DNA of 64,000 bases from Pseudeuparius sepicola. Taxonomy: Eukaryota > Arthropoda > Insecta > Coleoptera > Anthribidae. Where the stretch lies: NCBI GenBank assembly GCA_963920635.1, contig OY987307.1, forward strand, positions 19,421,735-19,485,734, in the 5' to 3' direction. Under the pieces are notes generated by a model, which saw only the letters and a program-made list of their open reading frames with translations, was not told the DNA's origin and searched no databases. Shown here in pieces: positions 5,766 through 60,414 of the stretch. Position 1 is the first letter of the stretch, and every line of letters starts with the position of its first letter. The translations under genes and the position numbers were made by a program.

Positions 5766-5990
<225 letters not shown>

Positions 5991-7138
5991 CTAACAACAT
6001 ATATATTTCTATACGGTTAAATTAGAACTATTCTAATCTACAACTACTAGAACGGCAATATTTTAGGAATCATTTTCAAGATGGTCTTGGTATGTACTTA
6101 TTAGAATTAGTTCTCTCGTTTCTTGCAAGAATGTTTCGTTTATTTTAAGCTTTTCATAGGTGGACCAATAAATCGGCTTGTTATAACCATAGAATACATA
6201 TTGTGGTCAAGAGGTCTAAGCAAAGAAAGTTGTTTTCAAAGTCCAAATAAATTATTAATTAATTTATTATTGTGCAATATCTACAGTGGTTTCAAATTTT
6301 CTCTTTGAATTACATGTAAAGTTATTGTGTATGCTTATGTTCTCATTTGATAACGAGCTTTGTGCATCGCATAAGGGAAGTAGAAAAACAAGTAAATTTA
6401 TAGAAATTCCGAGCAATACCTAACTCAGACCTGCTTACTGAAGGATTTGCAACCCGTTGAAACATTATTTAAAATTGTATTTAAGTGTTCGAACGGGCAT
6501 GTTAAGTAGATTTTTTTTGGTTGCCCACACTTGAAACACTTATAACCCGTTTGTCAACGCGGTTAAGTACGTCCGTCTAGTTTTTTAATAACAACATGCA
6601 ACAATGTTAATAATCTACATAAGTTACACTACAAGTTACTTAATTTTCATTTGTGAAGAAATAACGATTTCACATGTCCAACTTTTTCGACTAAGCTCGT
6701 GGTGATTTTTTCGCATATTAGCGTAGATAGCGGTCTCATTTAAAAATAATGAAGTAACCGATAATCCACGGTGAAAATTTTCAAGACCACTATCGGCGTC
6801 ACACTATGCATTTCATTATTTTTAATAAGTCGGCTTATTCGCAACGGCGCTACATTGTTATTTCTTCTTTTATCTCCCTACAAACGCATGCTTCGTGCTC
6901 CTTTGAAACACTAAACACTTCGGGCATTTGCTTTCAAAAAACAATTCACCGCGACTTTCAAAAACAAACACCCGAAAACCAAACGGCCACCCCGAACGAC
7001 AAAACATATATGGTAATATGTACACACGGTCGAACCATATAACACAATTTAGACCAATAATAGGTGTTACTCAACACTAAGTGATCGACACACTTCCGTT
7101 TTGTGAGAAACAACTATGGGAAGATTTACAAAAAAAAC

Positions 7139-7479
7139 ATGGAAGACACGTTTTCTATTATACTTAAATTTGTAGCGCCGGAGCTAAAATTTTTCTTTGC
7201 CTTGGAACTACTTTGATAACTTGTAGGTATGGGGAGAAAACAGATACCTATGCAATGGAAAAAGTCTTCAAAAATGGCAGAATAACCATGTACCACGACA
7301 ACCTGTCGCAATTGATTTCTCTCAAAATAGACTTTGGTAATTTTGAAAATTTGGCAAAAAATCCCGCTACAACAACTTTCAAACTTAAATTTTGGAGCGA
7401 AAACAAATTAAATCAGATAAATTGTAATGTCTTAGAATTCTTAAGACTCGATACTAACTTGCGTTATATTTTAATTTAA
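7139..7479 (+). pseudogene. Unassigned short reading frame, possibly frameshifted
   Basis: An ATG at 7139 opens MEDTFSIILKFVAPELKFFF... and stops at about 7215. In another frame, from about 7213 to 7479, a frame continues with YGEKTDTYAMEKVFKNGRIT, then MYHDNLSQLISLKIDFGNF, ending at a TAA. The residue composition looks protein-like: charged and hydrophobic residues alternate with few low-complexity runs. One shift near 7213 would connect the two parts. I do not recognise the product. It may be a relic of a transposon ORF or chance. Confidence 0.2.
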
Positions 7480-7849
7480 TAGTTATTAGTTTTTATATAA
7501 AATTCTATGCAAAATATTTTGTTGTAGCGTGCGAAATTTCAACAATGGTTCTAAGAGTCTATGTGCAGCTTTGTCTATGCTAAAGTCGATATGGGCAATA
7601 TTCCCCTAAAATTTTTCCAAGATGATGGAACTTCCAGTTATATCTACCGGAAATTGATGATATTTGTTTATTTAAATAGCATACCCTATATATTATTTCA
7701 TTTGTAGATTCTAAGCAAAATTCTACACATTCCCTGTGTAATATCCTTATACCAAAGTATCACCGTTCATTTACATACTTTAAATTTTATGTCAAAAATG
7801 ACGTTTGCATGCCTAAACATAACCATTAATTTCACATGAAGTCCTTTAT

Positions 7850-8099
7850 TATTAATTTGGGGTTGGTTTCCTTGTAAAAGAAGATCTACTTTCGTGGACT
7901 GTGATGATATTTTGATAGTTAAAAGTCATTTTTTCAAATAGAAACAACCTATTTCTATAATTTTATCTTATTTTGCATTTAGAACAAGGGTGAATTTGTA
8001 TAAGGTTGCCTATTTCAAAATGCTGCCAAATTTTCAAAAATTTCAATCTATTTTCAGAGAAATCGAACGCGGCAGTTCGTCGTAGGACACCCTATATAT
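7850..8099. mobile_element. Truncated transposon right end (GGACACCCTATA)
   Basis: Ends at about 8083-8095 in GGACACCCTATA, the inverse of the TATAGGGTGTCC-type terminus common in insect Tc1/mariner-like and foldback elements. The segment preceding it (gaaatcgaacgcggcagttc) is typical subterminal sequence. No matching left end was found upstream, so the left boundary is a guess. Confidence 0.4.
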
Positions 8100-8303
8100 A
8101 AGCAGATGGTTTCCTTGAATATTTTTTGTATTATATCATAGATAGTGTTGTAGAGAAAGAATGCACTCACTTATGCAAATTATTAAAAAAAGTGCGACTA
8201 CTTAATATTTACAATGAAGGGAAAGCTCCTAAATTGAAAAACAAACATTTCTATTTAATTTGCTTCATACACTGTGATGCCATTATAAATGTAGAGTTTC
8301 AGA

Positions 8304-8789
8304 TATACAGTGTGTCTCCGGATTGTTTGGACGACTCTTGTAAATGACAGAAAAAAATCGAGTATTTTACCTTTTGGGGTTCAGCCCTGCTTGGTTTGAA
8401 ACTAATTTGTGGCAATTTTACTTTCGAAAAATCAAGTATGTTTTGTACATTTTGAAAAAAGTATTTTTTACATCAGTAAAGTGCTCTTTTTGTAGGCTTT
8501 ACAACAAAATGTTATTAAGGAAACTTGTTGAGAATGAATGAGGGTAGGTTTACTGATGTAAAAAATAGAAGTAAAGTGCTTTTTTGTAGGTTCTACGATA
8601 AAATTTAATTAAGGGAACTTGTTCAGAATGAAAAACTGAGTAGAATTGCAAAATTTCAAATTTCCAAAGCATACTTGATTTTTCGAAAGTAAAAAAAAGC
8701 CAAGCAGGGCTGAACCCAAAAAGATCATTTGTAGAAATGTAAATGTCATTTACAAGAGTCGTCCAAACAATCCGGGGACACACCGTATA
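8304..8789. mobile_element. Foldback MITE, TACAGTGTGTCTCCGG ends
   Basis: About 485 bp. The termini TATACAGTGTGTCTCCGGAT and ATCCGGGGACACACCGTATA are inverted, and both arms carry TTGTTTGGACGACTCTTGTA or its reverse complement. The interior also has a pair of diverged direct repeats (about 8470-8545 and 8560-8630) around TAAAGTGCTyTTTTTGTAGG and GGAACTTGTT. No coding capacity. Confidence 0.85.
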
Positions 8790-9443
8790 TATTTTACATT
8801 TTATGGGTATATATCTGGCCAATGTTGATTAAAAAAATAATAATATGCAGTGTCCTCTAAAAAGCTCCTATCGTAGGGGGGATTTTTTATAAATGACTTA
8901 TTTTTAAATTTAACCCTATAGGCATATCTACTTTTTGCTCTATAAGAAAGATTAAAATTGACCCACTCAAATGTGGTCACGTGATTTGGACTCATTTGTT
9001 AAAATTTCAAAAAACTTTTACTTGTTCGTGTAGTTGTTTCTCTTCCAATTTTACATACCTAAGTGTAAATTTTTTAACATATTTATGACATTTCTGAAAA
9101 TTTTGAAAACTTTTGACTTTCTTTTAAAATTGAAATGGTTGTAGAGTTTAGTCTTTCACTTTAAAATTAACCGGTAAAAGGTACTCAAAGAAATAAGTAA
9201 GTACAGTAAAGGTTTTGAATATTCGTCTGAAATAAAAAAAATTGTGCTAGTTTTATGTGGTTTATCCATAAATGATGTTAAGTGTTTTTTTTACAAACCA
9301 TACTGAATGTTAATGAAGATTCGAGTGCTTCTATTTCGACGGCTGTAGTCTTTGTAGCATTTGAAAATTTAATGCAGTTTTGTCGTCTGGGGTGCCCGGA
9401 ACATCAAGAAAGGAAAAAAAACGGTATTATTCCGGGTTCTAAC

Positions 9444-9557
9444 CTGTTATGGAACTTATATCGGCAATCGTCCGCAGCCACGATGTCCATTAGCAGTATA
9501 TATTTGGATTTTTTGTCTAAGCCCGACACCCGCACTTTATAAGCAGGAAACATGCGC
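9444..9557 (-). CDS. omb: omb/Tbx2-3 T-box exon, alternative version B
   Basis: A second exon for the same T-box segment as 9611-9724, also 114 nt and in the same phase. It has one leading base, 37 codons starting [16 protein letters not shown] and ending DDCRYKFHN, then AG. The acceptor is a pyrimidine-rich ...ccattgttacag; the donor is AG|gttaga. It is uninterrupted. Compared with exon A, 29 of 37 residues are identical, and 17 of those 29 use a different codon, so silent sites have diverged while the protein has been held. Its differences (R for Q, KV for KF, KK for LK, M for L, C for Y) make it closer to the vertebrate TBX2/TBX3 version as I recall it. The AG end splices in frame to 5805-5958. 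A decayed pseudo-exon would be expected to show stops or lost splice sites; it shows neither. Confidence 0.88.
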
Positions 9558-9610
9558 CTGTAACAATGGAAAATCCGTTTCAACGATCGGTTGTTAAATT
9601 GTGACGTCAC
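9558..9610 (-). other. 53-nt spacer between the two alternative T-box exons
   Basis: In transcript order this runs from the donor of exon A (gtgacgtcac...) to the acceptor of exon B (...ttccattgttacag). At 53 nt it is near or below the usual lower limit for an intron that can hold donor, branch point and acceptor at workable distances. That would favour skipping one of the two exons. The first ten bases form the palindrome GTGACGTCAC, overlapping the exon A donor. Steric exclusion is inferred; the spacing and splice signals are seen. Confidence 0.6.
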
Positions 9611-9724
9611 CTGTTGTGGAACTTGTAGCGGTAGTCGTCGGCCGCCACGATGTCCAGCAGAAGGATGTACTTGGCCTTCAGGTCGAGACCGGACACCCGG
9701 AATTTCATCTGCGGGAACATTTGC
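9611..9724 (-). CDS. omb: omb/Tbx2-3 T-box exon, alternative version A
   Basis: Internal exon of a minus-strand T-box transcription factor that binds DNA in the nucleus. The frame reads one leading base, then 37 codons beginning [14 protein letters not shown] and ending DDYRYKFHN, then two trailing bases (AG). The acceptor has a strong pyrimidine tract ending ctag; the donor is AG|gtgacg. This is the N-terminal part of the T-box, following the GR of the GR(R/Q)MFP motif. From memory the wording ([16 protein letters not shown]) matches Drosophila omb rather than vertebrate Tbx2/3. The trailing AG joins in frame to the T CGA TGG at the start of the exon at 5805-5958, giving HNSRW. The G+C content is higher than in exon B. 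Only 53 nt separates it from exon B, which encodes the same segment, so the two are probably used alternatively. The preceding exon (end of the VTLE...MVITKSG segment) is not in the window. Confidence 0.92.
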
Positions 9725-10205
9725 CTAGAAAAACGAGAACAACGGGGTCAGAGCGGGATTTTTGGCGGCGCTGCTTCAATCCCAGGTGGAGTGAGCTCAG
9801 GTTGGAAACCTCTGCTGGAGGCTGGTGATGTTCTACGGGTTCCTGCACCTGAATATGGGGACTACATCAAAAATATATGAAAATCAGGGTCTACTCAGAT
9901 GTAGAATCTATCTGGAAATTGTTTATTATATCCAGTGATACATTTTTGCGTGATTGGCACATTAATTTTGTCATTTTAGATAACCTTTAAAATTCTGACT
10001 AAAGTTTGATACTCTCTCTCTCTGTTTGTATGTATATAAGCACTAGATGAAATTTTTATGTGTACTGGATATAAAAAATGAGTATAAGTACATATGCCAA
10101 GTTTTTCGACTGAAGGGCATAAGTGTCTGAAAAGCCGTAGATATAAAATAGCGAAACCAGACTTGAAATAAAAAAACAAACTGCATATTCATCTCAAGTC
10201 TCTTA
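9725..10205. other. omb intron just upstream of alternative exon A
   Basis: The first ~150 bp (9725-9870) are GC-richer than the surroundings and include the polypyrimidine tract of exon A's acceptor. They could hold splicing regulatory elements for the alternative exon pair, which is inference. The remainder is AT-rich with a short CT repeat near 10012. Confidence 0.35.
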
Positions 10206-11799
10206 TAAACTCCTGGACAAAATAAACGCACAACCCATATTTTTCTCGATATTTTTTGTATTTTTTCTCGACAAGTAGGCCATGGACCTTTTTTGACAGT
10301 GACAGTGGTTATATAAGCTAACTATAGTATCACATAACTTTGTTTTGACAGTAATTCGTATTAAGCCTCGCTTTAGGTTAAAACTGTGTTAAAATTTTCT
10401 TAAAAAGTGCTGACTAAAGCAAAATGTCTGTGCAAGCTTTCGATTGTGATGGTTTTTATCACATGCATGTTGTGAAGTTCGTTTTCGAGTAAACCAATTA
10501 AGGAAAATGAACCGCCAAAGAAATTTGTCAATTGAGGATGAATTGCGAGCATCGACTCTCCTGGATGAAGGATATTCAATGCGATGTTGCTGGTTTCTTA
10601 GGAAGACATCATTCCAGCGTCTGCCGCATGATGAGACGACATAATGAGACGGGCTCGTATCATCAAAGACCAGGTCAATGGCAAAAACGTTGCACTAATC
10701 AAATTGATGATCGTTTTTTGAGACAACGTGCTCTCAGAGACAAGAGAGACACCAGCAATCTGCTAAAAGATGAATTAGCAGATGTTCTAAATATCGCTAT
10801 ATCGTTTCGAACGGTTAGAAGATGTTTACATGAAGCGGGATTGAGCAACAGAAGACCGGCCAAAAAACCATTGCCTACCAGAGAACACAAAGTTCAGAGA
10901 TTTAATTTTACAAGACTACATCAGAATTGGACCATCAATATGATTGGAAACATGTTCTGTTCTCCGACGAAACAGAGTTAGCCCTAAAGCTACAGATGGA
11001 CGTAAGCGCATCTGGCGAAGGCGAAGAGAAAGGTTTGCCAGCTGCAATATCTCTCCTAAAGTATACCTTTTGGTGGTGACTCTAAAATGTTTTGAGAGGA
11101 ATTAGCTTCGATGCTCGCACGGAGTTGGTCCCTATACTTACGAGGTCTATGAATGCCCCATATTACTTAGACAACATTATTGTCGAACGTGTCATCATAT
11201 GTTTGCTAGGTTTGTTGGACTTAATTTTATTCATGCAGGCCAATTATTAACGCTCGCCCCCATGTGGCTAGACAGGTTATTGGCTACCTAAATGATGTTA
11301 ATATCCCTTTACTACAGTGGCCACCTAACAATCCTGACATGAATCCTATAGAGCATCTATGAGGCTATCTAAAAAAAGATTTGAAATCCCCCCTGTTGCT
11401 TATCACAATCAACTCATAGAGGTTGCTATTGAAGAATGGGAGAATATTCCTCAAGCTTTTGTTGAACATTAATTTGATATCAAGCATGCCTCTACGCATA
11501 AATAAAGTGACAAGAACTAGAGGAGGGCATACACGGTATTGGTGTTGACCCAGATGCATTTATTGTTTTGATGATTTGTTTCTTTTTTTTAATCTGGAGT
11601 TGTGCTGACCTATTTGTGCATTTTCAGCAAAAACACATTTTTAATGAAACATTAAGGCAAATTAAGGTCATGTTAGGATCATGTTTGACTAATTTGTAGG
11701 TGTTCATTATCATTTCAATATAACTTAGACTTATTTTGTGTTTTTATTGTAAATATTTAGATTAATTAAAGTGGTGCGTTAATTTTGCCCAAGAGTTTA
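10206..11799 (+). mobile_element. Degenerate Tc1-like DNA transposon
   Basis: Terminal inverted repeats of about 29 bp: TAAACTCCTGGACAAAATAA on the left, and the reverse complement of the right end begins TAAACTCTTGGGCAAAATTA. TA flanks the element. Between the ends lies a plus-strand Tc1-type transposase (about 10507-11555) broken by frameshifts and a stop. Recognisable parts in order are: an N-terminal HTH (MNRQRNLSIEDELRASTLLD, then GRHHSSVCRMMRRHNETGSY in another frame); a second HTH region (LRDKRDTSNLLKDELADVLN); the first catalytic Asp in HVLFSDET (third frame); QWPPNNPDMNPIEHL followed by a stop where Trp is expected; and a C-terminal TRTRGGHTRYWC. Nearly complete in length (1.6 kb) but inactive. 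Confidence 0.93.
10507..11555 (+). pseudogene. Tc1-like transposase, frameshifted
   Basis: A DDE transposase that would cut and paste the surrounding element at TA. The coding path changes frame at least twice (between GYSMR and the GRHHSSV segment, and before the FSDET Asp). It has an in-frame stop in the conserved PIEHLW motif near the third catalytic acidic residue. The longest intact part is 10532-10981. The motif order matches the usual ~340-residue Tc1 transposase. The longest open segments give no sign of adaptation for a host function. Confidence 0.88.
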
Positions 11800-12052
11800 T
11801 TCCTCAATATATAATTCGTTTGCGGAAAATCTTTGCCTCGTTCCAATGTAAAATATGATATTATATCAGGTATATTTCAGTTGGTGGCAAAAACTATGAA
11901 GTGGTCCAGTCACTGCCTACCTCGCTGCCTATATACTAACTTTTTTATATTACAATCTACCAGAAAAATGTCTGAGCAATTTTATTTTATATTTATGTGT
12001 CCTCTGCATCTATTGTATTTTTGACAATGACAGGCATTGACTAACTAGATAT

Positions 12053-13207
12053 GCAGGGTGATTCAGTCATGAATGTTAACACAGGTGGGAAAAAATAGCT
12101 TAATACGAATTCGGAATTTAAAATTTCTTAGTGGCTGAGTGGATGTGTAGGAGTTTGCAGAGACTGCAGTATCAGACAAAACATCAAAACTATGCACAAA
12201 ATGTGCAAATATGCATCGAAATTGAAACACTCTAATATCACTGTTTATTTTCAACTTCAATAGGTACAAGTTTAAGGCCTCGCGTATCGAGGAACACTCT
12301 ACACGCCATGGTCCACACACCTGTACTCAAGATATTGACAAGACTGAGTCGCTACAGTCGGTATTGTTCCTTTCTTACCGCATGCTACCGCCACCACCCG
12401 ACCATTGCTTTTGTTCTGGGAATAGTTATTCAACCGCAGTTAGTTCACATCAACGAAACTTTAACGTGGGGCTAAAACGAACTGTGAATACTTTATTAAG
12501 AATGCCTTGAAATAATTTTACTGATATGAATTAGCTGCGGTTAATTAACTATTCACAAAAACAATCCTCCTACTTTCCGAGATGAGTGGAGCCATCGCCA
12601 TCTATCCGGCGGTTTTTGAACTTGCCGACCCGTATAAGTAATCTGTATAATAATTGAATTACTGGCGCATCTGATGCGCCTAGTCACTGACAGACAACGC
12701 CGCCAGCGTCTAGTGGCCTGCCAGTCAATAAACTAAACAATCACGTCATAATAACCAAGCAACTTAAAAATGTGATACAAATGTGTTTGCGAAAATTTGC
12801 GAAAAGACTTTAAGCAAATATTTACTGGTGCTTATGACACAGATAACAGGCTTATGATGTGAATACCTGCAACATTTTTTTAAGATAAGTATTAGAAGTG
12901 TAATAATGTTATGTAAAATCAAGACTGAATACACAAAAAATGCAGATGAAAGGTACCTAGGTACCTAGATATTTCTTATTTCTTCAGTTTCACCTTCCAC
13001 AAAAAAGATTGAAATGTGGCAACATAGCTCTCCAGTGCCAACCTTGACGGTTGACATTGAAGCAGAAGCGTCGAGTTACTCAGGTATTAAGGTTCATTTA
13101 CCCAAGTTTTAAACTTAGAGAAAAAAATTCTTTCGCATTTTCCTTTTTAATAGACCTCCCCCACTGTGTGGTTAAAATTTTTTACATTATGTCTGAATCA
13201 CCCTGTA
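12053..13207. mobile_element. DNA transposon, CAGGGTGATTCAG ends, family R2 copy 1
   Basis: Short terminal inverted repeats: CAGGGTGATTCAGTCATGA on the left and the reverse complement of TCATTATGT-like CTGAATCACCCTG on the right. No transposase is recognised. Its segment 12150-12575 matches, in reverse complement, parts of the tandem units at 30300-30680 and 31455-31860. Shared blocks lie around gcatatttgcacat, acaggtgtgtggacc, tgactcagtcttgtcaa and gcagctaattcatatcagta. So the same family is represented three times. It is followed after 35 bp by another foldback element. Confidence 0.7.
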
Positions 13208-13242
13208 CAATTCATAAGAAAGGCTATTAGATTTTAGATCGG

Positions 13243-14525
13243 TATATACAGGGTATCCCAACGAAAACTTGACCCCCAAAAAATTCGAAAACCGAACAAT
13301 ATTTGAAAATTCGCCGAGACCCGTCGATTTTTGTTTTTTGGGGGGAGCTTTTTTGACAAACAAGCCAACCCGACATGTTCGTCCCCCTAAGCCCTAGCAA
13401 CCCCAACTTTAAAATTTCAAATGGAACTACCCCCTTGTGGCGCATCAATTTAAAGCCCTTTTTATTGAGAATACAGTGATGTATCGTTTTTAGAATTCTG
13501 TTGAGGTTTGACAGAATTATTGGCTAAAAACGGAAAGTTGACAATACACTGTACGCGTAGTAATTTCTAGACAAATAATGCCCGCCACTATTAAGTTTAT
13601 TATCTACTACACACGACCAAATTACATAGTTTTTATTGACGTCTCGATCAGTTTACAAAAAAGTCACAAATGAAAAAGCACAAGCAAAACAAACCTTATA
13701 TGTTTTTAAAATATGTAACAAAAAGTCACTGTCACAAAAAAAGTTCCCGTTTTTTTGCTTCTAATCACGAAATCGTTACTTTCAGCCTGCTATTGAAAGT
13801 GGAAACGTATTTTCGAAATGGTTTGTTTATTCTATCGCGGAAAGGGTAAAAATGGTTGCAATTTGATATCGAAATTATGATTGCGCTAAAGCTACAGCAC
13901 GAATTGCAACAATTTCTAACCTTTCCATGATAGAATAAACCATTTCAAAAACACGTTTACACTTTCAATAGCAGGCTGAAACTAACGATTTCGTAGTTAC
14001 AAGCAAAAAACGGGGACCTTCTTGTGACAGTGACTTTTTGTTACATATTTTAAAAAGATATGGGGTTTGAATTCGTATGAACTTTTTTTGTTTTGCTTCA
14101 GCTTTTTCATTTGTGATTTTTTTGTAAACTGATCGACACGTCAATAAAAACTAGGTAATTTGGTCGTGTGTAGTAGATAAAAAACTTAATAGTGGCGGGC
14201 ATTTGTGTAGAAATACAGTGGATTGTCAACTTTCCGTTTTTAGCCAATAATTCTGTCAAATCTCAACAGAATTCTAAAAACGATACATCACAGTATTCGC
14301 AATAAAAAGGGCTTTAAAATGATGTGCCACAAGGGGGGCAGTTCCATTTTAAATTTTAAAGTTGGGGTTGCTAGGGATTAGGGGGATGAACATATCGGGT
14401 TGGCTTGACTGTCAAAAAAGCTCCCCCCAAAAACAAAAATCGACGGGTCTCGGCGAATTTTCAAATATTGTTCGGTTTTCGAATTTTTGGGGGGGTCAAG
14501 TTTTCGTTGGGATACCCTGTATATT
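13243..14525. mobile_element. Near-perfect 1.28-kb palindromic foldback element
   Basis: Termini TATACAGGGTATCCCAACGA and TCGTTGGGATACCCTGTATA. The arms run about 13243-13870 and 13905-14525 and stay highly similar almost to the centre, where AATGGTTTGTTTATTCTATC meets its reverse complement. The visible differences are scattered substitutions and small indels. No transposase remnant is seen. It would form a very long stem-loop in single strands. The equivalent open frames near both ends (e.g. 13227-13448 minus and 14362-14553 plus) are the two arms read in mirror image, not genes. Confidence 0.92.
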
Positions 14526-15480
14526 TGGTATTACCAGATGCCGAAATATTTAGTCCTATAAATATTATATTCAAAATGTAAAATCAAAACAATACCGCGT
14601 GAAACATATAGTCGACGCGAAGTGGTGTGTTAAAATGTTCCACGTGTTTCCTTATCGTATCGATTCAGTGTCACTACTGACGTCGTATTCGATATTCCTG
14701 GGTTAATTAACTGAAACGGAATTCGAAAATTGGACCCAAAAAACTTGCTGGAGCCCGCTACTTAAAATATTTCCGAAACATTTAGTGAATATTAAACGCG
14801 GTTGTTTGGAAAATGGGAGCCCCTATAAAAAAAATACCCAACTCGAGGTGGTAATGAATGAAAGTGGCGCCAGGGTTTTAAACCTACATGATATCCCCCG
14901 AGGCTATACTCTTTAATCACGCTCGGTGAAATGGCTACGAAGGCAAAATAATAGTAATTGCCTCCCTCCCCCGCATAAGCAGTCAGTTGCTTCTGGGGTA
15001 CTCCTAGTTTGGAGTATTGTGAGGGTGAGAATTATTATATTATTATTCTCTATTACCAAACATACCTAGTTTGGTTCCTAAGATTTCGATCTATAACGAA
15101 GATCTTGCTTATAATAATAGGTATATGAATATATGGGTGGTCTAGTAGCAGGAATCCTTCTTCCTTTCATAAAAATAAGTTTTTCGACATACTTGACCAT
15201 CAACTTTCCTTCACTATCAACAGTTCGACTCGTTTCAACTGTCGAATGTACAAATAGTCAAATTATAGATAATTCCCATTCTCAACGTATCGATATAATT
15301 ATTACTTAAACGAAAATTGAATGTCTAGTATCCAAATTTCTAAAAAGCTTATTTATTAACTAGTTTTGTTCCAAGGTTGGATTAAGGTTCATCTGTCAAA
15401 TGTTTTTATCTCATTGGTTGGAAATGTTAAACAAACACCGAAACAGAATAAAGGAATGAAATCTCTTTGTGTCTCCTAAC
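14526..15480. other. GC-mixed non-coding block with dispersed motif
   Basis: Positions 14580-15000 are moderately GC-rich, apparently single-copy, and have no reading frame; this is a possible regulatory block. At 14996-15032 there is a TACTCC...GGAGTA stem-loop followed by TTGTGAGGGTGAGAATT, also seen at about 22386 and 41984. Positions 15060-15480 are AT-rich with nothing recognised. Confidence 0.3.
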
Positions 15481-15628
15481 GGTAAAATTTTTATTATACT
15501 TGATCTATATCTTCATGTTGTTGCTTGCTTCTTCCAGAAACTATATGCACTTTGCTTATATTGAAACTAATGTCTCTAGCAGTTTCTACTACTTCAGCAC
15601 ATAATCGACCATATTATCCAGTCCCGTT

Positions 15629-16082
15629 TCATTTAGTTGCATTCCGAAGGGGCCATGTTCCGATAAGAACATTACTGTCATTACAGGTGACTAGTCTAAA
15701 TAAAACTGCACTGCTAACTTGACTTTTGCACAAACATGGAGATACAAAGTAATTCCCAGTGCAGGTTAGGTGGTATTGCGTCTCAGTACATTTAGTGCCA
15801 ATAGCCAATAGCAGCTCTTCTTGAACAACACTTGGATATCCCTGGTGGTTTTTTGAAATGTTTCTACTCCCATTTGTTTCGTCCACTCCGTTGAAAAAAA
15901 TATTTTTTTGCTTTGGTGGCAGGGCTGTTGGCAATAGATAATCGCAGTGTTATTGACATATGGGTAAGTAATGTAAGTGGGAATGTGAAATTTCGCTGAT
16001 GAAGATGTTGCGAAGAACGAAACCAAGTACGGAACCTGGGATGTCTTCGATAGGCTTCACGGAAGAGGTGAATCCCAAGCAA
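15629..16082 (-). pseudogene. Unassigned minus-strand coding remnant
   Basis: Three overlapping minus-strand frames (15864-16082, 15766-16026, 15629-15934) cover one region. The most protein-like runs include LPPKQKNIFFNGVDETNGSR, then TKCTETQYHLTCTGNYFVSP and CLCKSQVSSAVLFRLVTCND, giving five cysteines in about 45 residues. This could be a decayed secreted or transposon-encoded product. I do not recognise a family, and no splice structure is evident. Confidence 0.2.
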
Positions 16083-17914
16083 TTGAAGAGATACGAGGAG
16101 ATGGCTTTGACAAAAACCAATTATTGTTTCTGCATTATCATTGCACTATTCCAGTGTCTTGATGTTCAAATGTTGTAGTACCTAAACTTCTGCATTTGGT
16201 CGGATTTAATAAAATTTTAAGTACTAATTAGAGACATTTCTATACTGAAAATGACCATAGTATAAAATATAATTTCTGTGGGCCAGCTTCTACAATGCAA
16301 TGTAACACGAACAAGTCGTTAATTTAGCCTCGGTCTTATAAGAATTGCTGTGCGTAGCACCTCCTGTTTTTTACACTGCGAGTTACATGCCCGTGTATAA
16401 TAAAAATACCAGGCGTGTTTACACTTGACATGGAGCCGTATTTACAGGCAAACGAAAAAAAAACTCGAAATAAACCCTCGCAACTTGCGAGAGGGGAGAA
16501 ATCAAATGCTGAAGGAATGTCTTAATATTCTCCGAGCTGTCTTAAAATATTCCAATTTAGGCGGTTCGAATGCGTGGGGATGCGAGTGTATTTTTCAATT
16601 TGGCGAAATTGGAAGGTATATATGTTACTTGGTTTTCATAAATCTCAAGCGTTTATTTTCGGAGAAGTGACACTTTCTCTCCCTACTCAGAAAAATTGGT
16701 TTCAAGTTCTAAATTAAGGTTGACTAACACATGAAAAGTTATTGATATGTTATCTACAAACAACAGTAGGTAATATAGTATTCTCTTCAAGAAAATATGA
16801 CAACAAAAAAGGGAAATTCATGAGTTTTAGGAGCGATCTGTATCAAAATATATTATAATGGCTAGAAAAGCAAGCCTGAATGGAATGGGCGGTCCTACTC
16901 AAATATTAGTAATAGCATCTGATAAAAATAGGAGGAAACAAAATATACCTACTATAATAGTGTCAAGTGTTAACACTCAGCCGGTGTTATAGTTTGAACA
17001 ATGTTAACGTTTTTACCTAAACCTTACACACACTATTTTAAACAGATAAGGCAATCTAAAACAAACAAAACACTCGACTTTATGGGATAAGCTTTGGAGA
17101 TTATCACCACGAAATATAAAATTTAAAAGTTTTTGAATGAGACTGCACACTTCTTAATCGCGATTTCGCTTCTGCCCCCGACTGTACCAATAATAGCAGG
17201 TACCAATGTTCTCACCTACCTGAACAAACATGTAATTACCGCGTCACCGTTTATAAATACAGTAATTTTTACCTTATACATCACAGATAAATTCCAAATA
17301 ATTTCATAAATTATAGGTTCCGGCGGGACGAGAGCGCCAGAAATGTTTATGTTCTGATACCCCTCAAATATTTAATATGACTTCCAGGGCGCCCGCAGCC
17401 AAACACATCTTCGTTTGCATGATACTGCGGTTGTGTGCTATTTTTTTGCACCTAACTCGTTTTCGCGTCTGGAGTGTTATATAATGTGGGTAATATGCCC
17501 CCAACCGTACACTATAATTTAATTAATGTGGATAGAATACCAGCAGGTAGAAGCTACAGTGTTTGTAACCGGTGAGTTCTTACTTTGCAAGTGCGGCAAC
17601 ACTGTAGCTAGTGGAATAAGTCCTGTGCTTTTGCTTAGGTGCAATTGCAAGCATTAGATATGGGGCACCCTTTTTAAGAATGTGGTATTAGTGAAGATTG
17701 TTTGGACGTTTAATCCCTTTCTTTATGATTAGAAAATAACTTTTTACGTCTGAACTCTATTTAACAAAAAAAGTAAAGGTGAAATATTTACAATGTTCAG
17801 ATCTCGGTTCAGATCCATTTAATTTTTAGTTTGTTTTTTCGCCATGACGAGATAGGCCAATACCTATGCCTTATAGAAATGTTGTTTGTTTCCGAGAGAT
17901 TATTGTGGCAATAT
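16083..17914. other. Mostly AT-rich non-coding stretch
   Basis: No repeats or coding features that I can support. Positions 17160-17560 are somewhat GC-richer and look single-copy (a possible regulatory block). A short open frame at 16425-16670 has no recognisable homology. Confidence 0.3.
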
Positions 17915-18207
17915 AGGTACCTCGATTGCTGTAAGAAGTCGGTATTTTGTCAGATGACAATTCTTCACAAAATCCCTAGGAATTTTCTGTTGTCCGTGGG
18001 TATAACAGTAGCATAATGCGTCGCAACCAGTTAATGACGTCACTCATTGATTTATGGTGGTAAAAGTTTCCCAAGTGATACTAAAAGAGCACAATAAAAT
18101 AAAAACCCCATTGCAATCACTATTATACCCCTGCATATAACAATAATAATTATGTAAACACTTTTCATTTTGGTATTTTGGTATAGTCAGCTGCTTTAAG
18201 CAGCGTC
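17915..18207 (+). repeat. Dispersed repeat family R1, copy 2, left half
   Basis: Reverse-complement match to 1680-1975. It is split from its other half (20349-20645) by the 2.1-kb insertion at 18210-20346. Comparison with copy 1 across the junction shows the pre-insertion sequence ran through a single TA. Confidence 0.75.
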
Positions 18208-18209
18208 TA

Positions 18210-20346
18210 CCCAATAAACACATACACGTTGATTAAACGTTTTAAAATGTCAAGACACCAATTGAAAAAAGCGTGTCTTCCATACGTAGAATCAACTTTT
18301 AGATGTCGCGGTTTTAAACGTGTGAATGTACGTTTTAGTTTATAAAATATTCAAATTTTACGTATTGTTAAAAGATTGCTTAAACGTTCTTCCTAACGTG
18401 TTATTTTAGTGTCTAAATTATTGGTAATATTTTACGTACCGTTCAACGAGTATTTTAGTTTCTTTATAACGTTATACCTTATTGCAGTTTTAACGTAAAT
18501 TAGACGTTAAATTATGCGTCTAAAAAATGTGTTTTCTCAACAAAACTTTAACGTATTGTACCCGAAGTAATATAGAGTATTACTTGTTTAAAAATTGTAT
18601 AGAAAATGTTCCGTTACAAAATAGTAAACAATTATAGTATAACAATTTAAATTATTAGTAATGAAAATATGACATTCCTGGTCTGACAGCCGACCCTTTT
18701 ACAGGACATTTTCTTTTTAAATGTTCTATTTTCAAAAATTAAAAATCCAAAAAATTAATCATTTTTTTCGAATCTTAACTAATTATTAAATTATTTGAAT
18801 AATTGTCCTATACCCTTCGAATTTTTGACATAAATTTCATACCTAGAACAATTTGTTTCAAGGAAACTGCCATCATTTAATATATTGTTTTGTTAATAAT
18901 AAGTTTATTGATATTACAAAAAAGGTTTCTACATCTTTGAACTTTTCATTTTTTTATTTCTTGTGGGTCACTTATTTGTAACAACGTTCCAATAAAATGC
19001 TATTTTTTGTTATTTTGTTTTGTGTTATATTTTTTCGAAAAACTCTAAAATTAAGTAACATTTTGTGTTATGAAATACTGAGTAGGTATGAAGTATATAA
19101 GAACTTACAATGCGTAAAAATGTGTGATAAAGATAAATAAAGTTACATGCAAGTTACAATAATTATTTTTGTTTCTTTCCCTGATTTAGTCTAGTCCCTG
19201 AATGTTTTAGCCATTCCTTGACTGTCCAAGCAACCTGGTTATCATTTCTTTCGTGAACTGGGTAAGTTCAATTTTGCTGCCTCTAAAACAAGAATGATCA
19301 AAATTTAACAAAGCTATAAAATAAATAGGAGGCGATGGAAAATGTAAATTTACAAAAATCAGATATAAAACGAACAGTCAAAAAAGATTAGTGTTTAGTT
19401 ATCCCCAGTTCTAATAATATTTTACACACGTCTGCTCCAGAGGATATATTTTTATTAATTTGGCAGTTAGTGATATAACAATCCCTATTAATTGTAAATT
19501 GAGTATATTAAACATACAGAGCAAGAGTTTTGATAGATGTACTTACCCAAAATAAGAAAAATTACTATTTACACTTATTTATTCAGCGAACCTGGTGTAG
19601 GTACACTTGCTTATCTAGCTGCGACGATTTTTCTGATGTTGGTCTGCCGCAATAATAGAGCCAGCCGTGCATCGAGTATTCTCGAGTCGCGCGGTCACGT
19701 GATCTTCTGTCCACCAATCACATACATTGGTTTATTAAAAGCCGTTAGTTGCGCGTTTATAGAAACGTTATAAATACGTTCAAATAATACCATATTTTTA
19801 CGTTATATTTCAACGGTAGTTGTAGGTGTTTAATGAGCCCATATTTTAGAAATTGGTTTCAAGCAATGTTAAAAACACGTATCGATACACGTCAAACATG
19901 TGATCCGTTTGTACGTTATTCTTACATAAAAATATTGACTATTATATTTTCGTCAAAAAAATACGATTATAAAACGTTTGTTATTTCCAGTCATTAAATT
20001 AATTTAATTAGATGTTAGTTAAAACGTTTAAAAGACGTTAATTGTATTAGACCTTTTAATGTATTATCAACACATTAAAAAAACGTGTGTAAGATGCTAA
20101 TATGGTTAAAATGTAAGTTATAAAAACGTGTCGTAATTTAATAAATTTAAAACTTCAAAATAACGTCATATTAACCTGAAAGTTTTCTTAACTTAGATTT
20201 TGGTTAAAAATGTTCGTATAAAGAACGTTGAATAAAAACGGTGTTTTTTTGTATCAAAATAAAACGGTTGATTTTCTAACGTACACGTTTTATCAACCAA
20301 TGACACGTTGATTTTACGTTTAATAAATGTAAGTGTGTTTATTGGG
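18210..20346. mobile_element. 2.1-kb TA-inserting element with ACGTT-rich ends
   Basis: Terminal inverted repeat CCCAATAAACACA at both ends, flanked by TA on each side (18208-18209 and 20347-20348). The uninterrupted repeat copy at about 1665 has a single TA at this place, so the target duplication is TA. Both ends are packed with ACGT cores, mostly AACGT or ACGTT: by my count 13 in 18210-18560 and 17 in 19740-20346, against about 1 in the 1.2-kb middle. There is no transposase; the longest frame inside (19537-19773) is unrecognised. It is a non-autonomous element with subterminal binding-site-like arrays. Confidence 0.8.
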
Positions 20347-20348
20347 TA

Positions 20349-20645
20349 TGTGCAGACTCAGGCAAATTTAGTTTCGGTGTGTCAAAGTGACACTGAAGGG
20401 TTTCCGGGTCGTTCAAACTGACTCAAATATTCGGCAGTGAAAATATTCGCGGGTTTTGTACGTTTCGTGAGTTTTACCGTTATCTGTGTTGTTCTTGTTT
20501 ATGTTCACTACTTTCCGTGTTCATTGTGCAAATGGGCTCGTTACTGACCTGAACTCATGACACGGTTGCATTTTTTGCTGCATTGATGCCAACTTAGGAT
20601 GTTGAAATTACCAATTGACAGCCCTAGTAAGGACTAATTGACTAT
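20349..20645 (+). repeat. Dispersed repeat family R1, copy 2, right half
   Basis: Reverse-complement match to about 1445-1665, including acaccg/cggtgtgtcaaagtgac, ccgttatctgtgttgttctt, gcaaatgggctcgttac and accaattgaca. It continues the family interrupted at 18208. Confidence 0.75.
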
Positions 20646-21606
20646 ACCTACCAAATAACCAAGCTACTGAACTAAAATTTAGCACTGTGTTTTTTGCTTT
20701 TACTTGTTGCGTTGAGGAAAAATTCCCTCTATGAACAAGTTATCAAAAATTGTTCGCTTTCAAAATGGAACGGATTGAATCAATGGTGTTATTCCCAATG
20801 CCCCTCTGTGAGAAATATAGGAATTCACATCTTCAGCTGATCTTCCATCTCAAAAAAAAAAACAGCAGCGCCAAATTACAGTTCAGCAGCTTGACTATTT
20901 TGGTAGATATAGCCAACTTCAATGCCCAAACAACATTTGTGTAGGGCATATTGTACTCATCCACTCAGTCTCATTTTGGTCTCCTCTAGTCTCATGGTAT
21001 AGATTTGCCCAATGAACTCTATAGTAACGTAGAGTTCAGTGGATTTGCCTCTGCAATTAAAACTGCGCCATCTTCTTCAATAGTCTGTCTATTATTACCG
21101 GTCCTGCTTCTTTAAAGAATAAGGCTTCACATTTGATTCGGTTCAGATACATATTTTGGCAGCCTTTCGTTTTCCCAAGTCTGTCGTTCCTATGTCATCA
21201 CTTCTCAGACCTACTACAAAATGTGTAGATGTTAAACATTCAGAAAATCTGGATCTATATAGATAAGAGATCGAGTATTTAAAATTTACTCAACTTCTAC
21301 CAAGGCTGATTACAAAGTCTCCTTTTGGCGCTTTCCATGTGTCTCTCTGCCTTCTTATGCACCCTTCACTCATACTTTGCGATCTTTTCGGCGTGCTTTA
21401 CAAATAAATTGTAGTTGTTGGAATGACCATATCAATAAGAGTTGCGGTTTACAAGAAATTTTATTCTGTAATGTAAGGTGACTTGTGCCTATAAGTAACG
21501 TACAGTAGGTGTATATAGCTATAGGTATACTTCCTATACTTTCGCTTATCCAAAACATTAGTATTAGGTATATTATAAGTATTTTAAATGCGAAATCGAC
21601 ACAGTG
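20646..21606. other. Non-coding stretch, nothing recognised
   Basis: AT-rich sequence with short chance frames (e.g. 20750-20944 plus, 21370-21675 minus) that show no family motifs, repeats or splice context. Confidence 0.4.
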
Positions 21607-22199
21607 TACAGGGTGATCCAAACTCGAGGCCCCAGGCCTACAGCGGGAACACGAAAACTCAAAATAAAATTTCAAAAGGGGGTTCTTAAATGGGACATAC
21701 TAAGGTCCAATTTTGACGGAAAGTTAGCTTTTTTTTATGTTTGGGAAAATGGCCGCTGTGGCGTCATCGATATTATTTTCCCAGAAACATACCAGTTTTT
21801 CTCTATATATTGAAAGTCCTTATCCTTCTCACCAACTTTTGTAGGAAAAGATTTTCTGCATCTTTTATTGTTCAAAATATACAGGGCCAAATATGTAAAA
21901 AACATGGAATTTTTTCTAATCATTTTTCGAAATCTAGATAGCCATGGAAACAATTGATAGTCAGAAATTATTTAAGAGTATGTTAGGTTGCCTTGCGCAC
22001 CCTTAAATTTATTCAACTGGAATATTTTTAATTTTTTTTTGTAACAAACAATAATAACAAACAAGTTAGTAACAAGCACAATTCAGAGATTTAAAAAATA
22101 TTCCAGTTGAATAAATTTAAGGGTACATATTTGACCCTGTATATTTTGAACACTAAAAGATACAGAAAATCTTTCCCATACAAAAGTTGTTGAGAATGA
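21607..22199. mobile_element. Foldback element, right arm truncated
   Basis: The left terminus is TACAGGGTGATCCAAACTCG. Inverted arms pair 21815-21895 with 22130-22199 (landmarks TATATTTTGAACA and AGAAAATCTTT), and an inner perfect stem of about 30 bp is formed by 22000-22034 with 22090-22125 around TTCAACTGGAATATT. The right arm stops at about 22199, where sequence of another foldback family begins, so about 200 bp of right arm is missing. Confidence 0.75.
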
Positions 22200-22568
22200 A
22201 CCTGGCTTCGGAAAACCAAAGGCTTGAGTATTGCAGATGGCTATAAATGGTTGAAATAAGGGCGTAATCTTGTAAAGAAATATCGAGATTTTGACCGATT
22301 TTTCCACACAAGCCCATCGAAGGTATGAAAATAATCATCGTCACTAGCCCTAAAAACACAAAAAACATACTATGCATATACTTCTGGGGTACTCCTATAG
22401 TTTGGAGTATTGTGAGGATGAGAATTTTTTCCATATGTTATCCCCAGGGGCCACTCGTAAATTTCCCTTCATTCTACTCAGCATCGATGTACTTTTCAAC
22501 CCTCTTCGAGGCTAGTATATAGGTATGCGAAAATGGAGCAGCTAAATCTGTCACTATCTGACGGTCTT
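22200..22568. mobile_element. Partial copy of foldback family F3
   Basis: Half of the family also seen complete at 23363-23920 and 55616-56516. It contains the GGCTTCGGAAAACCAAAGGC segment, the CACTAGCCC segment, and the right end TCCATATGTTATCCCCAGGG through CTGTCACTATCTGACGGTCT. The dispersed TACTCC...GGAGTA motif sits in its middle (22386-22425). The left terminal half is absent. Confidence 0.7.
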
Positions 22569-23362
22569 AAATATATGAAACTAAATGGCTAACGCGACGC
22601 TCTACTAAACTATAATGCATGCATGCATTATGAGTGGTCGGCCGTCGACGACGGCGACTCTACTCGTCTCTTTTCAGCTTCAGAGCGGGCGCGTATGCTG
22701 TTGCCTCTGTCTCACTTACAATGCATTTATCCTTGTGGATTGCTATAATAACCCGTGAGGTCAATTTAAAATAGGGCCAGGCAGACAGCGGATAGGAATG
22801 AATTAGATATTAGTAACCTTGGCTCCATTATCGGTCTATACTTAGTTACATTTTGTCTAGATACGACGTGTCGCGTGCGCGAACAAAAAAAAAGGCGTCC
22901 AAAAAAGCCATGTTCACAGTCGAAATAATCCGTTTAGGGGAAATGCCGATTCGGCCAAATTCGTTTTTAATTAATGCGTTTGCGGGCGATATTTCAGCGC
23001 GACATTTAAAACGAAAAAATTCAATTAGAAGCGAAAACGCCCCCTGTGCGCGAAATCAATTTGCCAGCACCGCGCCGCTCCCGAATTATTCGCGGTTTCG
23101 TTTCGGCCGTTTTTCCGCTGCGCCGCAACAGATATTTTTGGGCGCTGTGACGGCAAAACATTAGTTCCCCGCATTTCAATCAGATAATTCCATTTGAAAT
23201 GCTAATTAACTCGGATTCGCTATATAGGACCGCTTTGCCACTGTGTTTCGCGTTAAACGCCGATTCCGGGGCGCTTTCACAAAACGAAAAGAATCACACG
23301 TTGGCCGGATTACCCCGCAGTTTGCGGGTTTATCGGCGTAACTACCGGGAATTGTTTTATAT
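22569..23362. other. GC-rich single-copy block between foldback copies
   Basis: Contains a perfect 20-bp palindrome ATAATGCATGCATGCATTAT (22612-22631). A stretch rich in CpG and homeodomain-like AATTAA follows at about 22830-23350. One open frame (22853-23164) has the R/N/K-rich composition of translated non-coding DNA and no recognised family. The block is flanked on both sides by the same foldback family in opposite orientations. It is a candidate regulatory module by composition only. Confidence 0.3.
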
Positions 23363-23920
23363 TAGACAGTGAGATAGCCACAGATTTAGGTGCTCCATTT
23401 TCGCGTACAAGCCTCGAAGAGGGTTGAAAAGTACATCGATGTTGAGTACAGTGAAGGGAAATTTACTTTACGAGTGGCCCCTGGGGATAACATATTACGG
23501 AAAATTGGATTCTCCTGTATAATATACTCGTATATTATGATATGTTAATTTTATGTATAATATATTTTTTTATGTTTATCGGGCTAGTGACGATGTACAT
23601 TTTCATACTTTCGATGGGCTTGTGTGGAAATATCGGTCAAAATCCAGATTTTTCCTTAAAAAATTACTCCCTTAATTAAACCTTTTAGCCACCTGCAGCA
23701 CTCAATAAGCCTTTGGTCTTTCGAAGCCAGGTTCTATTAATTAATAATATAGTGAACACGCGGCTTGCGTGAAAAAATCGGATTTTCCATATGTTATCCC
23801 CAGGGGCCACTAGTAAATTTCCCTTCATTCTACTCTCAACATCGATGTATACATTTCAACCCTTTTCGAGGCTTGTATGCGAAAATGGGGCACCTAAATC
23901 TGTCACTATCTGGAGGTCTA
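23363..23920. mobile_element. Foldback family F3, complete copy
   Basis: About 560 bp. The left arm begins TTAGACAGTGAGATAGCCAC and the right arm ends CTGTCACTATCTGGAGGTCTA; both contain the CCTCGAAGAGGGTTGAAAAG-type segment and GGGGATAACATAT-type segment in inverted orientation. The left tip lacks five bases relative to the right. No coding content. Related to 55616-56516 and 22200-22568. Confidence 0.8.
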
Positions 23921-24420
23921 TTATATGGAATAAGTGAGAATCTCTATACTATGTCAGGTACTATCTTTCTAACATTTTCATTTACAACCTATATTTGACA
24001 AGTTTTTTAAATGAAATCTGTTTTTGACCTTCCACTAACTTCTTAAGCGGTTAAATTTCCTCAAGGCTGCTCGTATGTATATTTACACTACCATTTTGTG
24101 GAGATATTTAGATTAGTGAGAAATTTTGCTGTCATTAACCCCAAGGCTCCATTTTAGTTAGGTACTGTTTTATGTTTTCCCTTTATACTTTGCTGTAAGC
24201 ATTTTATAAATATAAGTCTAAAAACTGTGATTGATAATTAAGTATATTACCTGCTACTAATTTCCATAATTCAGAAATTATTAAATTAAATTACATCATT
24301 CCTGTTCTGCCTTATTTCTTGCGACTAGATATCACTTTTCCATTTCTTGGGTTCTTCTCTAAAAATTTGTCCTAAATTCTTTATAAAATTGCCGTTTTTT
24401 TTCGGTTAAATATCTTCTTT
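23921..24420. other. AT-rich stretch, nothing recognised
   Basis: No coding, repeat or regulatory features that I can support. Confidence 0.4.
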
Positions 24421-25660
24421 TATACAGGGTGTAACTAAACTGATGGTCAAAAATGAAACCACGTATTCTTGGAGTCAAAATAAGGGCACTTCTTCATATA
24501 TTTTTTTCTCCTACGGGCCATAGTTTTTTTTATACAGAGCGTAGAAGTTTGGAGAAAAATACACATATTTCTTAGTATTTCTAGAAGTATACGAAATATT
24601 TTCGTCAAACTTGGCGTGTCACATGAGCGGATGAGTTGTCAAATTTAAGGTTAATATGAAGCTTGTGAGGCCCCCAGTTGCAGAGATACAGGGTGTTATT
24701 AAAATTAATTAGTTCAGAAAAATATGAATACCCTGTATAATCGCATTTTTTAAATTTGTTTTGAATGGTAAATTCAATGGTTAACAAAAAGTATCTCTTA
24801 GTATTTGTTCATATTCGCAGCCGTTTCTTAATTATTTTTAAAAAAACGGCAACGCTGCAATGAGCAATAGTCACTTTAAGAATAAATCTAGCAATCAGTG
24901 GATGTCAATTAAACTTTATTTAACAAAATACAAAAGCAAAAACAATAATAAAAGAAACGAATTGCTATTAGAAAATTAAATTATTAAATGTTCGAAATGA
25001 CCGCCGTTTCTTTCAATACACGCAACTATGCGTTTCCGCATGTTTATTATTGCCATTGGCAAGTCCATAGCAAAAGTGCATATCAGTCAATTCTTCAAAT
25101 GAAAATATAATTTTTCAAAATATTGATACTAAAGTGCAAAGTTGGCAGCCAAATGATTCAAATAATGCCAAGTTTAATTGACATCCACAGGTTGTTAGAT
25201 TTATTCTTAAAATGACTTGTTTATTGCAGCATTGCCGTTCTTTGAAAATAATTAAAAAACGGCTGAGAATATGAAAAAATACTAAGAGATACTTTTTGTT
25301 AACCATTGAATTTACCATTCAAAACAAATTTAAAAAATGCATATGCATATCATATTTTTCTGAACTAATTAATTTTAATAACACCCTGTATCTCCGCAAC
25401 TGGGAGCCTCAGAAGCTTCATGTCAACCTTAAGTTTGACGGCTCATCTGCTCATGTGACGCGCCAAGTTTGAAGAAAATATCTCGTATACTTCTAGAAAT
25501 ACTAAGAAATATGTGTATTTTTCTTCAAACTTCTACGCTCTGTATAAAAAAAAACTATGGCCCATAGGAGAAAAAAAATATATGAAGAAGTGCCCTTATT
25601 TTGACTCCAAGAATAAGTGGTTTCATTTTTGACCATCAGTTTAGTTACACCCTGTATATA
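24421..25660. mobile_element. Foldback element with fossil transposase tail
   Basis: Termini TATACAGGGTGTAACTAAAC and GTTTAGTTACACCCTGTATA. The arms (about 24421-24915 and 25140-25660) mirror each other closely, including GACCATCAGTTT, GAGTCAAAATAAGGGCACTT and AACGGCAACGCTGCAAT-type blocks. The spacer (about 24916-25139) carries on the minus strand a short frame MRKRIVACIERNGGHFEHLI followed by a stop. That is the C-terminal tail pattern of a Tc1/mariner-type transposase. The element therefore looks like an internally deleted, inverted-duplicated derivative of an autonomous transposon. Confidence 0.85.
24990..25077 (-). pseudogene. C-terminal tail of a Tc1/mariner-like transposase
   Basis: The minus-strand frame reads ...LPMAIINMRKRIVACIERN, then GGHFEHLII and a stop. 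The ending R(V/I)xxCIxxNGGHFEHL is a recurrent tail of insect Tc1/mariner (IS630) transposases as I recall them. About 30 codons survive; the catalytic region is gone. It sits in the spacer of the foldback element 24421-25660. Confidence 0.6.
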
Positions 25661-25799
25661 GTGCTCACTTTTTCACCCGGTATAATAGTTCCTTTCTTAC
25701 TAAATCTAGATTTGTAGATTTGCAGATTTCCTCGGGGTCGTTTGGTCCTAATGGCTTTTCTTCACTGCGACCTATGTAGATCTTTTGTGAGTGACCCTA

Positions 25800-27240: not shown

Positions 27241-27492
27241 TCGAAAACGCAGTGGTAATTTTCTATTTAATTTTTGTCGATTTTCTGTTTATTGGCAATA
27301 TTAGGAATTTCTTTTAAACAAATTCTTTGTTAGTTACCTAGTTTATATATGCCAAAAGTGAATAAACGTTTCCTATATAATTATAGAAAAATGTGTTTAT
27401 TTTAATAAATTTTCCGTTAACACGATAAATTTCTTCAAAAAACATATTTTTATTATACTTTGAACCAACTTCACTGAGACAGGGCTCGTAAT

Positions 27493-27520
27493 ATAAATAT
27501 ATATATATATATATATATGT
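27493..27520. repeat. AT dinucleotide microsatellite
   Basis: An uninterrupted AT run of about 24-28 bp in AT-rich sequence. 27241-27490 and 27521-27770 hold nothing else recognised. Confidence 0.8.
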
Positions 27521-48499: not shown

Positions 48500-48503
48500 T
48501 TAA

Positions 48504-60412: not shown

Positions 60413-60414
60413 TT

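What the first reader, a model, noticed from the sequence alone, without database searches (positions are those of the whole stretch)
9444..9724. Mutually exclusive exon pair inside the omb/Tbx2-3 DNA-binding domain
Seen: two adjacent minus-strand exons (9611-9724 and 9444-9557), both exactly 114 nt with identical splice phases. They encode the same 37-residue piece of the T-box (29/37 identical), and both fit in frame to the single downstream exon at 5805-5958. Neither has a stop or a broken splice site. Of the 29 identical residues, 17 use different codons, so both copies have been under protein-level selection for a long time. Known: T-box genes have one copy of this segment. Vertebrate TBX3 has an alternative inserted exon in the T-box (the +2a form), so isoform control within this domain has a precedent, but I know of no swap of this segment. 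Inferred: the gene makes two proteins with different T-box N-terminal faces, possibly differing in DNA or partner preference.
Basis: partly seen in the sequence, partly recalled or inferred. Interest (0 to 1): 0.92.

Follow-up and report, generated by a model that had tools for sequence, protein, structure and literature searches.

The report
Swappable DNA-binding exon in insect omb
A beetle copy of the developmental gene omb carries two interchangeable versions of one piece of its DNA-binding domain; the same pair occurs in other insects and in a shrimp, so this classic regulator probably exists as two long-lived protein forms, one of which seems to be missing in flies.

Summary
Two adjacent minus-strand exons, A (9611-9724) and B (9444-9557), are each 114 nt, agree at 29/37 residues, have intact splice sites, and either fits in frame between omb exon 1 and exon C. 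The genome (769 Mb, unnamed) looks like a beetle's. Of 227 listed relatives, 99 carry A only, 102 B only, 23 both in the order A-B, and 3 start inside A. Every listed A carrier with a name is pancrustacean; B is the general animal Tbx2/3 form. In three lepidopterans, equal-length annotated isoforms differ at seven residues, all in this exon. So this is an ancient tandem exon duplication giving two T-boxes by alternative splicing. Strict mutual exclusion is not shown: both-in stays in frame, 14 annotated isoforms contain both exons, and 53 nt is an ordinary intron length in this genome. Of three MXE criteria, one is met and two stay inconclusive without RNA-seq. No report of it turned up in the papers searched. 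What the A/B difference does is inferred, not tested. New member of a known kind.

The parts
9611..9724 (-). exon A: derived (omb-type) version of the T-box segment, [37 protein letters not shown]
   Evidence: 122 relatives' segments of this type
9444..9557 (-). exon B: ancestral (Tbx2/3-type) version, [37 protein letters not shown]
   Evidence: 125 relatives' segments of this type
9558..9610 (-). 53-nt intron between A and B, GTGACG...TTACAG
5805..5958 (-). exon C, common downstream T-box exon (SRWMVAGK...DKHGF), 154 nt
5959..9443 (-). intron B-C, 3485 nt
9725..64000 (-). part of the 85.5-kb intron between omb exon 1 (outside the window, G000 C9:19516985-19517409) and exon A

Best explanation
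This is a tandem exon duplication inside the T-box of omb (Tbx2/3), older than the split of shrimps from insects. The pre-mRNA joins exon 1 to either A or B and then to C, so one gene makes two T-box proteins that differ at about seven or eight positions in the N-terminal part of the DNA-binding domain. B keeps the general animal Tbx2/3 residues; A is derived, with fixed replacements including Gln for the second Arg of the SGRR motif. Shown: the exon pair, the frames, its breadth, and paired annotated isoforms in three lepidopterans. Inferred: that one exon per mRNA is the rule in this beetle, that the choice is regulated, and that A and B differ in DNA affinity, sequence choice or partners.
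For:: A and B both join in frame to exon 1 and C without stops. Q1, Q5, M6, F8, L23 are fixed in 122 of 122 A segments, and R1, K15, M23, C31 in 125 of 125 B segments; segments were assigned by majority over six diagnostic positions, so this is partly by construction, but only 2 of 247 segments (P0023, P0122) were mixed at all. Helicoverpa armigera X6/X7, Nymphalis io X3/X4 and Achroia grisella X6/X7 are equal in length and differ at 7 residues, all in this exon, 0 outside; beetle-like proteins from short contigs (2.9 and 2.6 kb, source 'lgn', no name) carry A alone (P0040) and B alone (P0149), although the gene spans more than 230 kb here, so they look like spliced mRNAs (inference). A precedes B in 23 of 23 two-exon proteins, from beetles, moths, butterflies, a termite, ants and a shrimp; saturated synonymous sites. 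B is closer than A to TBX3, TBX5, a TBX2-type protein (P0181) and this genome's org-1-like gene (32/28, 27/23, 34/30, 18/15 of 37); the five other T-box genes whose matching exon I could read in this genome all have Arg where A has Gln.
Against: 14 annotated 'isoform X' proteins in 8 species (7 Lepidoptera, Penaeus monodon) hold A and B together, so exclusion may be loose. Joint inclusion stays in frame, so mRNA decay would not remove it. 53 nt is an ordinary intron length in this genome: six other short introns, presumed constitutive, measure 53, 56, 56, 57, 58 and 77 nt. A local fold of the region is no stronger than shuffles (z -0.49). No transcript of this species was available. The isoforms cited are database models, not experiments.
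Confidence: 0.8

Rival explanations
1. A and B are two independently included cassette exons. A-only, B-only and A+B proteins are all normal products, and the A+B form (38 extra residues within the T-box) has its own role, for instance as a non-binding or dominant-negative form.
For: 23 of 227 listed proteins hold A+B; 14 of them are named isoforms X. The A+B join is in frame and the 53-nt intron is of spliceable size here.
Against: 9 of the 23 bear names such as hypothetical protein, unnamed product or partial, which suggests automatic models that may chain every open exon (my judgement from the names). None of the 10 entries whose only source is 'lgn' holds both: 5 A, 5 B. But only the five A and P0149 bear on the question: the other four B entries (P0157, P0176, P0204, P0207) look non-insect, and P0204 reads into intron. 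A second copy of the segment inside a compact beta-barrel domain is unlikely to fold (inference; the AlphaFold attempt was too poor to test it).
Confidence: 0.17
2. B is a leftover ancestral exon that is rarely used in this lineage, A being the working form, as seems to be so in flies.
For: All dipteran entries in the three lists are A only, and in the two Acromyrmex models B has five departures from the usual B.
Against: In beetles B-only proteins are annotated in Leptinotarsa, Diabrotica, Nicrophorus, Aethina, Sitophilus, Anoplophora, Onthophagus and Lamprigera, and B here has no stop, the full set of B residues and consensus splice dinucleotides.
Confidence: 0.04
3. Assembly artefact or merger of two paralogous genes.
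For: None found.
Against: One DNA match in the genome; the same A-B order in 23 of 23 two-exon proteins from many species; the eight other T-box loci fetched (L001-L008) are at most 55% identical to a beetle omb protein.
Confidence: 0.01

Closest known systems
TCF3 (E2A) exons 18A/18B giving E12/E47 (PMC12585103, passages read)
   Same: Two neighbouring exons chosen alternatively within a transcription factor, giving two protein forms with different behaviour; the paper treats it among mutually exclusive exon events. That these exons encode part of the bHLH domain is recalled.
   Different: bHLH factor, described in human cells; regulators (PTBP1 and others) are reported there and unknown here.
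Mammalian TBX3+2a (PMC4625211, passages read)
   Same: Splice variant inside the T-box of the same gene subfamily.
   Different: A 20-residue insertion into the e-e' loop, not a replacement of a segment.
COE/EBF duplicated HLH exon (PMC2394523, abstract and outline read)
   Same: Tandem duplication of one exon of a conserved transcription factor.
   Different: Vertebrate, fixed by mandatory inclusion of the duplicated exon; not a swap.
OGDH exons 4a/4b (PMC7969005, passages read)
   Same: Anciently duplicated exons, mutually exclusive, with an intervening intron restricted in size.
   Different: Metabolic enzyme; branch points were mapped there and could not be located here.

Membership tests
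Mutually exclusive exon cluster (criteria as quoted from PMC5740500) | neighbouring internal exons of similar length and sequence with the same reading frame | tested here: met
   114/114 nt, 29/37 identical residues, same phases
Mutually exclusive exon cluster (criteria as quoted from PMC5740500) | each exon joined to flanking exons while bridging the other | tested here: inconclusive
   no reads of this species; in relatives, equal-length isoforms differing only in this exon
Mutually exclusive exon cluster (criteria as quoted from PMC5740500) | no exon-exon joining transcripts unless they shift the frame | tested here: inconclusive
   14 annotated isoforms X and 9 other models hold A+B, in frame, which speaks against; reads not available
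MXE of the steric-interference type | donor to branch point too close for splicing A to B | tested here: inconclusive
   53-nt intron, but six control introns are 53-77 nt, one of them also 53. The branch-point motif scan is not usable: the A-B intron has nTnAy motifs at 4, 9, 17 and 50 nt from the donor, one control has a motif at 17 too and one control has none at all
MXE of the frame-shift/NMD type | joint inclusion breaks the frame | tested here: not met
   114 is divisible by 3; A+B is open
MXE of the competing RNA structure type | docking and selector sequences | tested here: inconclusive
   only a local fold was run, z -0.49; no cross-species intron DNA was available
omb / Tbx2 subfamily of T-box factors | T-box domain closest to TBX2/TBX3 | tested here: met
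   PF00907 E 5.9e-34 and 4e-35; best solved chain TBX3, 173 bits against 120 for TBX5 (A+C query only); 12 listed proteins at 100% over A+C, 11 named, all from beetles

The most novel reading that the evidence does not exclude
Pancrustacean omb has for several hundred million years encoded two T-boxes with different DNA-binding or partner behaviour, chosen by splicing. Flies lost the ancestral B form, so what is known of Drosophila Omb describes only the derived A form, and other arthropods keep a second, vertebrate-like Omb.
Probability: 0.45. Interest if true: 0.8.

Novelty: new member of a known kind. Interest (0 to 1): 0.64.

Why it matters
omb/Tbx2/3 is a textbook patterning gene (wing, eye, optic lobe). 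A splice switch inside its DNA-binding domain, kept from shrimps to beetles and moths, would be a second layer of control that may have gone unstudied because the fly model seems to have only one form. It gives a clean, testable pair of proteins differing at seven or eight residues, and a case of how exon duplication tunes a DNA-binding domain.

Tried and rejected
Steric exclusion by intron length alone: not supported. Six other short introns in this genome, presumed constitutive, are 53, 56, 56, 57, 58 and 77 nt (one in an org-1-like T-box gene, five in CCT chaperonin genes). I looked at six CCT joins; in one (L016) I could not place the intron. Branch-point distance: I first thought the A-B intron unusual (motif 17 nt from the donor), but one control also has a motif at 17 and another has none, so the scan decides nothing. 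Frame-shift/NMD enforcement: rejected. Local RNA structure: no signal. AlphaFold models of an A-only protein (P0042) and an A+B protein (P0006): mean pLDDT 51 and 49, pTM 0.22 and 0.20, not interpreted, no fold search made. Chelicerate A exon: a chimeric query (chelicerate-like flank plus A) showed no A in the chelicerates listed; the scorpion, horseshoe crabs and spiders listed were all B, but only the best 120 of 1346 hits are shown. I saw no myriapod name in the three lists, so the origin cannot be placed more finely. Beetle mini-exon at the C-D boundary: a short-motif scan of the window's 5804 bases downstream of C found none; not pursued further. Daktulosphaira: my anchor string missed its A exon, so its row (0 inside, 10 outside) is not usable. 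In one search two further same-species pairs (Helicoverpa X4/X2, Achroia X6/X8) have 7 differences inside, 1 outside and 6 gap columns.

Limits of the counts: searches list only the best 120 of 1624, 1197 and 1346 hits, from a database described as clustered at 90%; the 227 proteins are what those lists hold together. The three proteins not classed by my pattern (P0088, P0096, P0115) begin inside exon A and read as A. Absence of B in Diptera rests on these capped lists alone.

Full report
What is there. On the minus strand the window holds three coding exons of omb (Tbx2/3): A 9611-9724, B 9444-9557 and C 5805-5958. A and B are both 114 nt, have the same phases, and encode 37 full residues of which 29 agree; 17 of those 29 use different codons and 34 of 114 nt differ. 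The synonymous distance is saturated and dN is 0.19. Exon 1 lies outside the window in the same genome (G000 C9:19516985-19517409) and ends GGGAG|GTAGGT; A and B both begin with the G that completes the split Arg codon, and both join C as ...HN-S-RW. Exon D is at C9:19282453-19282602. Exon1-A-C-D, exon1-B-C-D, both-in and both-out are all open. Introns are 85,526 nt (1-A), 53 nt (A-B), 3485 nt (B-C) and 144,936 nt (C-D). A DNA search of the 769-Mb genome with the A-B stretch gives one match, itself.

How wide it is. Three protein searches (best 120 listed of 1624, 1197 and 1346) gave 227 proteins. By majority over six diagnostic positions, 99 have A only, 102 B only, 23 A followed by B, and 3 begin inside A and were not classed by the pattern. 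Listed A carriers with a name include Coleoptera, Lepidoptera, Diptera, Hymenoptera, Hemiptera, Orthoptera (Schistocerca), Ephemeroptera (Cloeon), Isoptera (Cryptotermes), Collembola (Folsomia, Orchesella), Artemia, Lepeophtheirus, Palaemon and Penaeus: all Pancrustacea. Listed B carriers include beetles, moths, butterflies, true bugs, a lacewing, Penaeus and Eriocheir, and, outside Pancrustacea, ticks, spiders, a scorpion, horseshoe crabs, acorn worms, echinoderms and vertebrates (orders assigned by me from the species names). In A, Q1, Q5, M6, F8 and L23 are fixed in 122 of 122 segments; position 15 varies (Ala 93, Leu 15, Asn 6, Pro 5, Thr 2, Ser 1). In B, R1, K15, M23 and C31 are fixed in 125 of 125. 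Since segments were sorted by these positions the fixation is partly built in, but only 2 of 247 were mixed: decapod A has Cys at 31, as B does (P0023, P0122). B is nearer than A to solved TBX3 and TBX5, to a TBX2-type protein and to this genome's own org-1-like gene, and five of five other T-box genes read here have Arg where A has Gln, so B is ancestral and A derived. The two-exon models put A before B in 23 of 23 cases, from a shrimp to ants, so one duplication before the malacostracan-hexapod split is the simplest account; the date of that split, over 450 million years, is recalled.

Are both used? In Helicoverpa armigera (X6/X7), Nymphalis io (X3/X4) and Achroia grisella (X6/X7), two annotated isoforms of equal length differ at 7 residues inside this exon and nowhere else. 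Beetle-like A-only and B-only full-length proteins come from 2.9-kb and 2.6-kb contigs of a source marked 'lgn' (P0040, P0149); since the gene spans more than 230 kb here, I read these as assembled mRNAs. They are probably from different species (83 differences and 23 gap columns outside the exon). None of the ten entries whose only source is 'lgn' has both exons (5 A, 5 B), though four of the five B entries look non-insect and say nothing on the point.

Is it exclusive? Not proven. Fourteen annotated isoforms X in eight species (Papilio xuthus, Maniola jurtina, M. hyperantus, Bicyclus anynana, Bombyx mori, Plodia interpunctella, Danaus plexippus, Penaeus monodon) and nine other models contain A+B. 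Mutually exclusive exon criteria as stated in PMC5740500 need junction reads (passages), which I could not see. I tested ways of enforcing exclusion. Frame shift: no, 114 is a multiple of three. Intron too short: the A-B intron is 53 nt, but presumably constitutive introns of 53, 56, 56, 58 and 77 nt in CCT chaperonin genes and 57 nt in an org-1-like T-box gene occur in the same genome. Distant branch point, as reported for OGDH 25-41 nt from the donor (PMC7969005, passages): undecided, because my motif scan finds a motif 17 nt from the donor in the A-B intron but also in one control, and none in another control. Local RNA fold: z -0.49. How the choice is made stays open; trans-acting splicing factors, as for TCF3, are a guess.

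What the swap could do. PMC4625211 (passages) numbers a Gly-Arg pair G129/R130 in TBX3; the double mutant G129A/R130S showed no DNA binding there, and the paper cites TBX5 G80R, Omb R355K and TBX2 R122E/R123E as matching cases. Placing G129/R130 on the SGR that precedes the swap (my reading), the first full residue of A and B is TBX3 R131, matching TBX2 R123: Arg in B, Gln in A. So the swap begins right after two residues needed for binding and changes one of the two arginines altered in the TBX2 mutant. That A works as a transcription factor follows from flies, whose listed omb proteins are A only. A change in affinity, motif or partner is my inference, not a result.

Literature. Searches for T-box or optomotor-blind with mutually exclusive (exons), alternative splicing or exon duplication showed no account of this exon pair; I saw listings (30 of 73 papers, 12 of 20) and one passage of PMC8465105, a table row 'Optomotor-blind protein-like' with two numbers whose headings I did not see. 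The library lacks most subscription papers, so this is not proof of absence. The isoforms themselves stand in public annotation.

Verdict. A real, old, and apparently undescribed alternative exon pair in the DNA-binding domain of omb; new member of a known kind (precedent: TCF3 E12/E47). Certain: the exons and their breadth among the listed relatives. Likely: one exon per protein as the main mode. Open: the mechanism of choice and the functional difference.

Noticed in passing
C-D exon boundary, window 5805 and downstream (exon D outside the window): Many insect omb relatives carry inserted peptides at KHGF|TILN: beetles LKEKAVDFL and variants, Lepidoptera ELIYSQSQRMLSKLLWPN...DHL and/or CVTQ, several orders VST, mosquitoes VGDASTVW (39 of 227 did not match the pattern). 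This looks like the place of the mammalian TBX3 exon 2a insertion: a second variable splice site in the same domain.
   Followed up: partly
L006 1689-1745 (G000 C9 about 33.416 Mb): An org-1-like T-box gene (name from recall) has a 57-nt intron at what looks like the same codon and phase (FHS|SSW) as the B-C intron of omb, so this intron position may be shared between T-box subfamilies.
   Followed up: partly
30224-32217: A stretch of about 1.2 kb is tandemly duplicated (spacing 1166-1179, 94-99% alike) within the omb intron.
   Followed up: no
40488-41765 and 43998-44700: Long inverted repeats (arms 87-99% complementary), possibly non-autonomous DNA transposons.
   Followed up: no
10511-10978 (+) and 47669-48016 (+): Transposase remnants: Tc-type helix-turn-helix (PF01498, 1.8e-14) and DDE_Tnp_1_7 (PF13843, 3.3e-8; piggyBac type by recall).
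   Followed up: no
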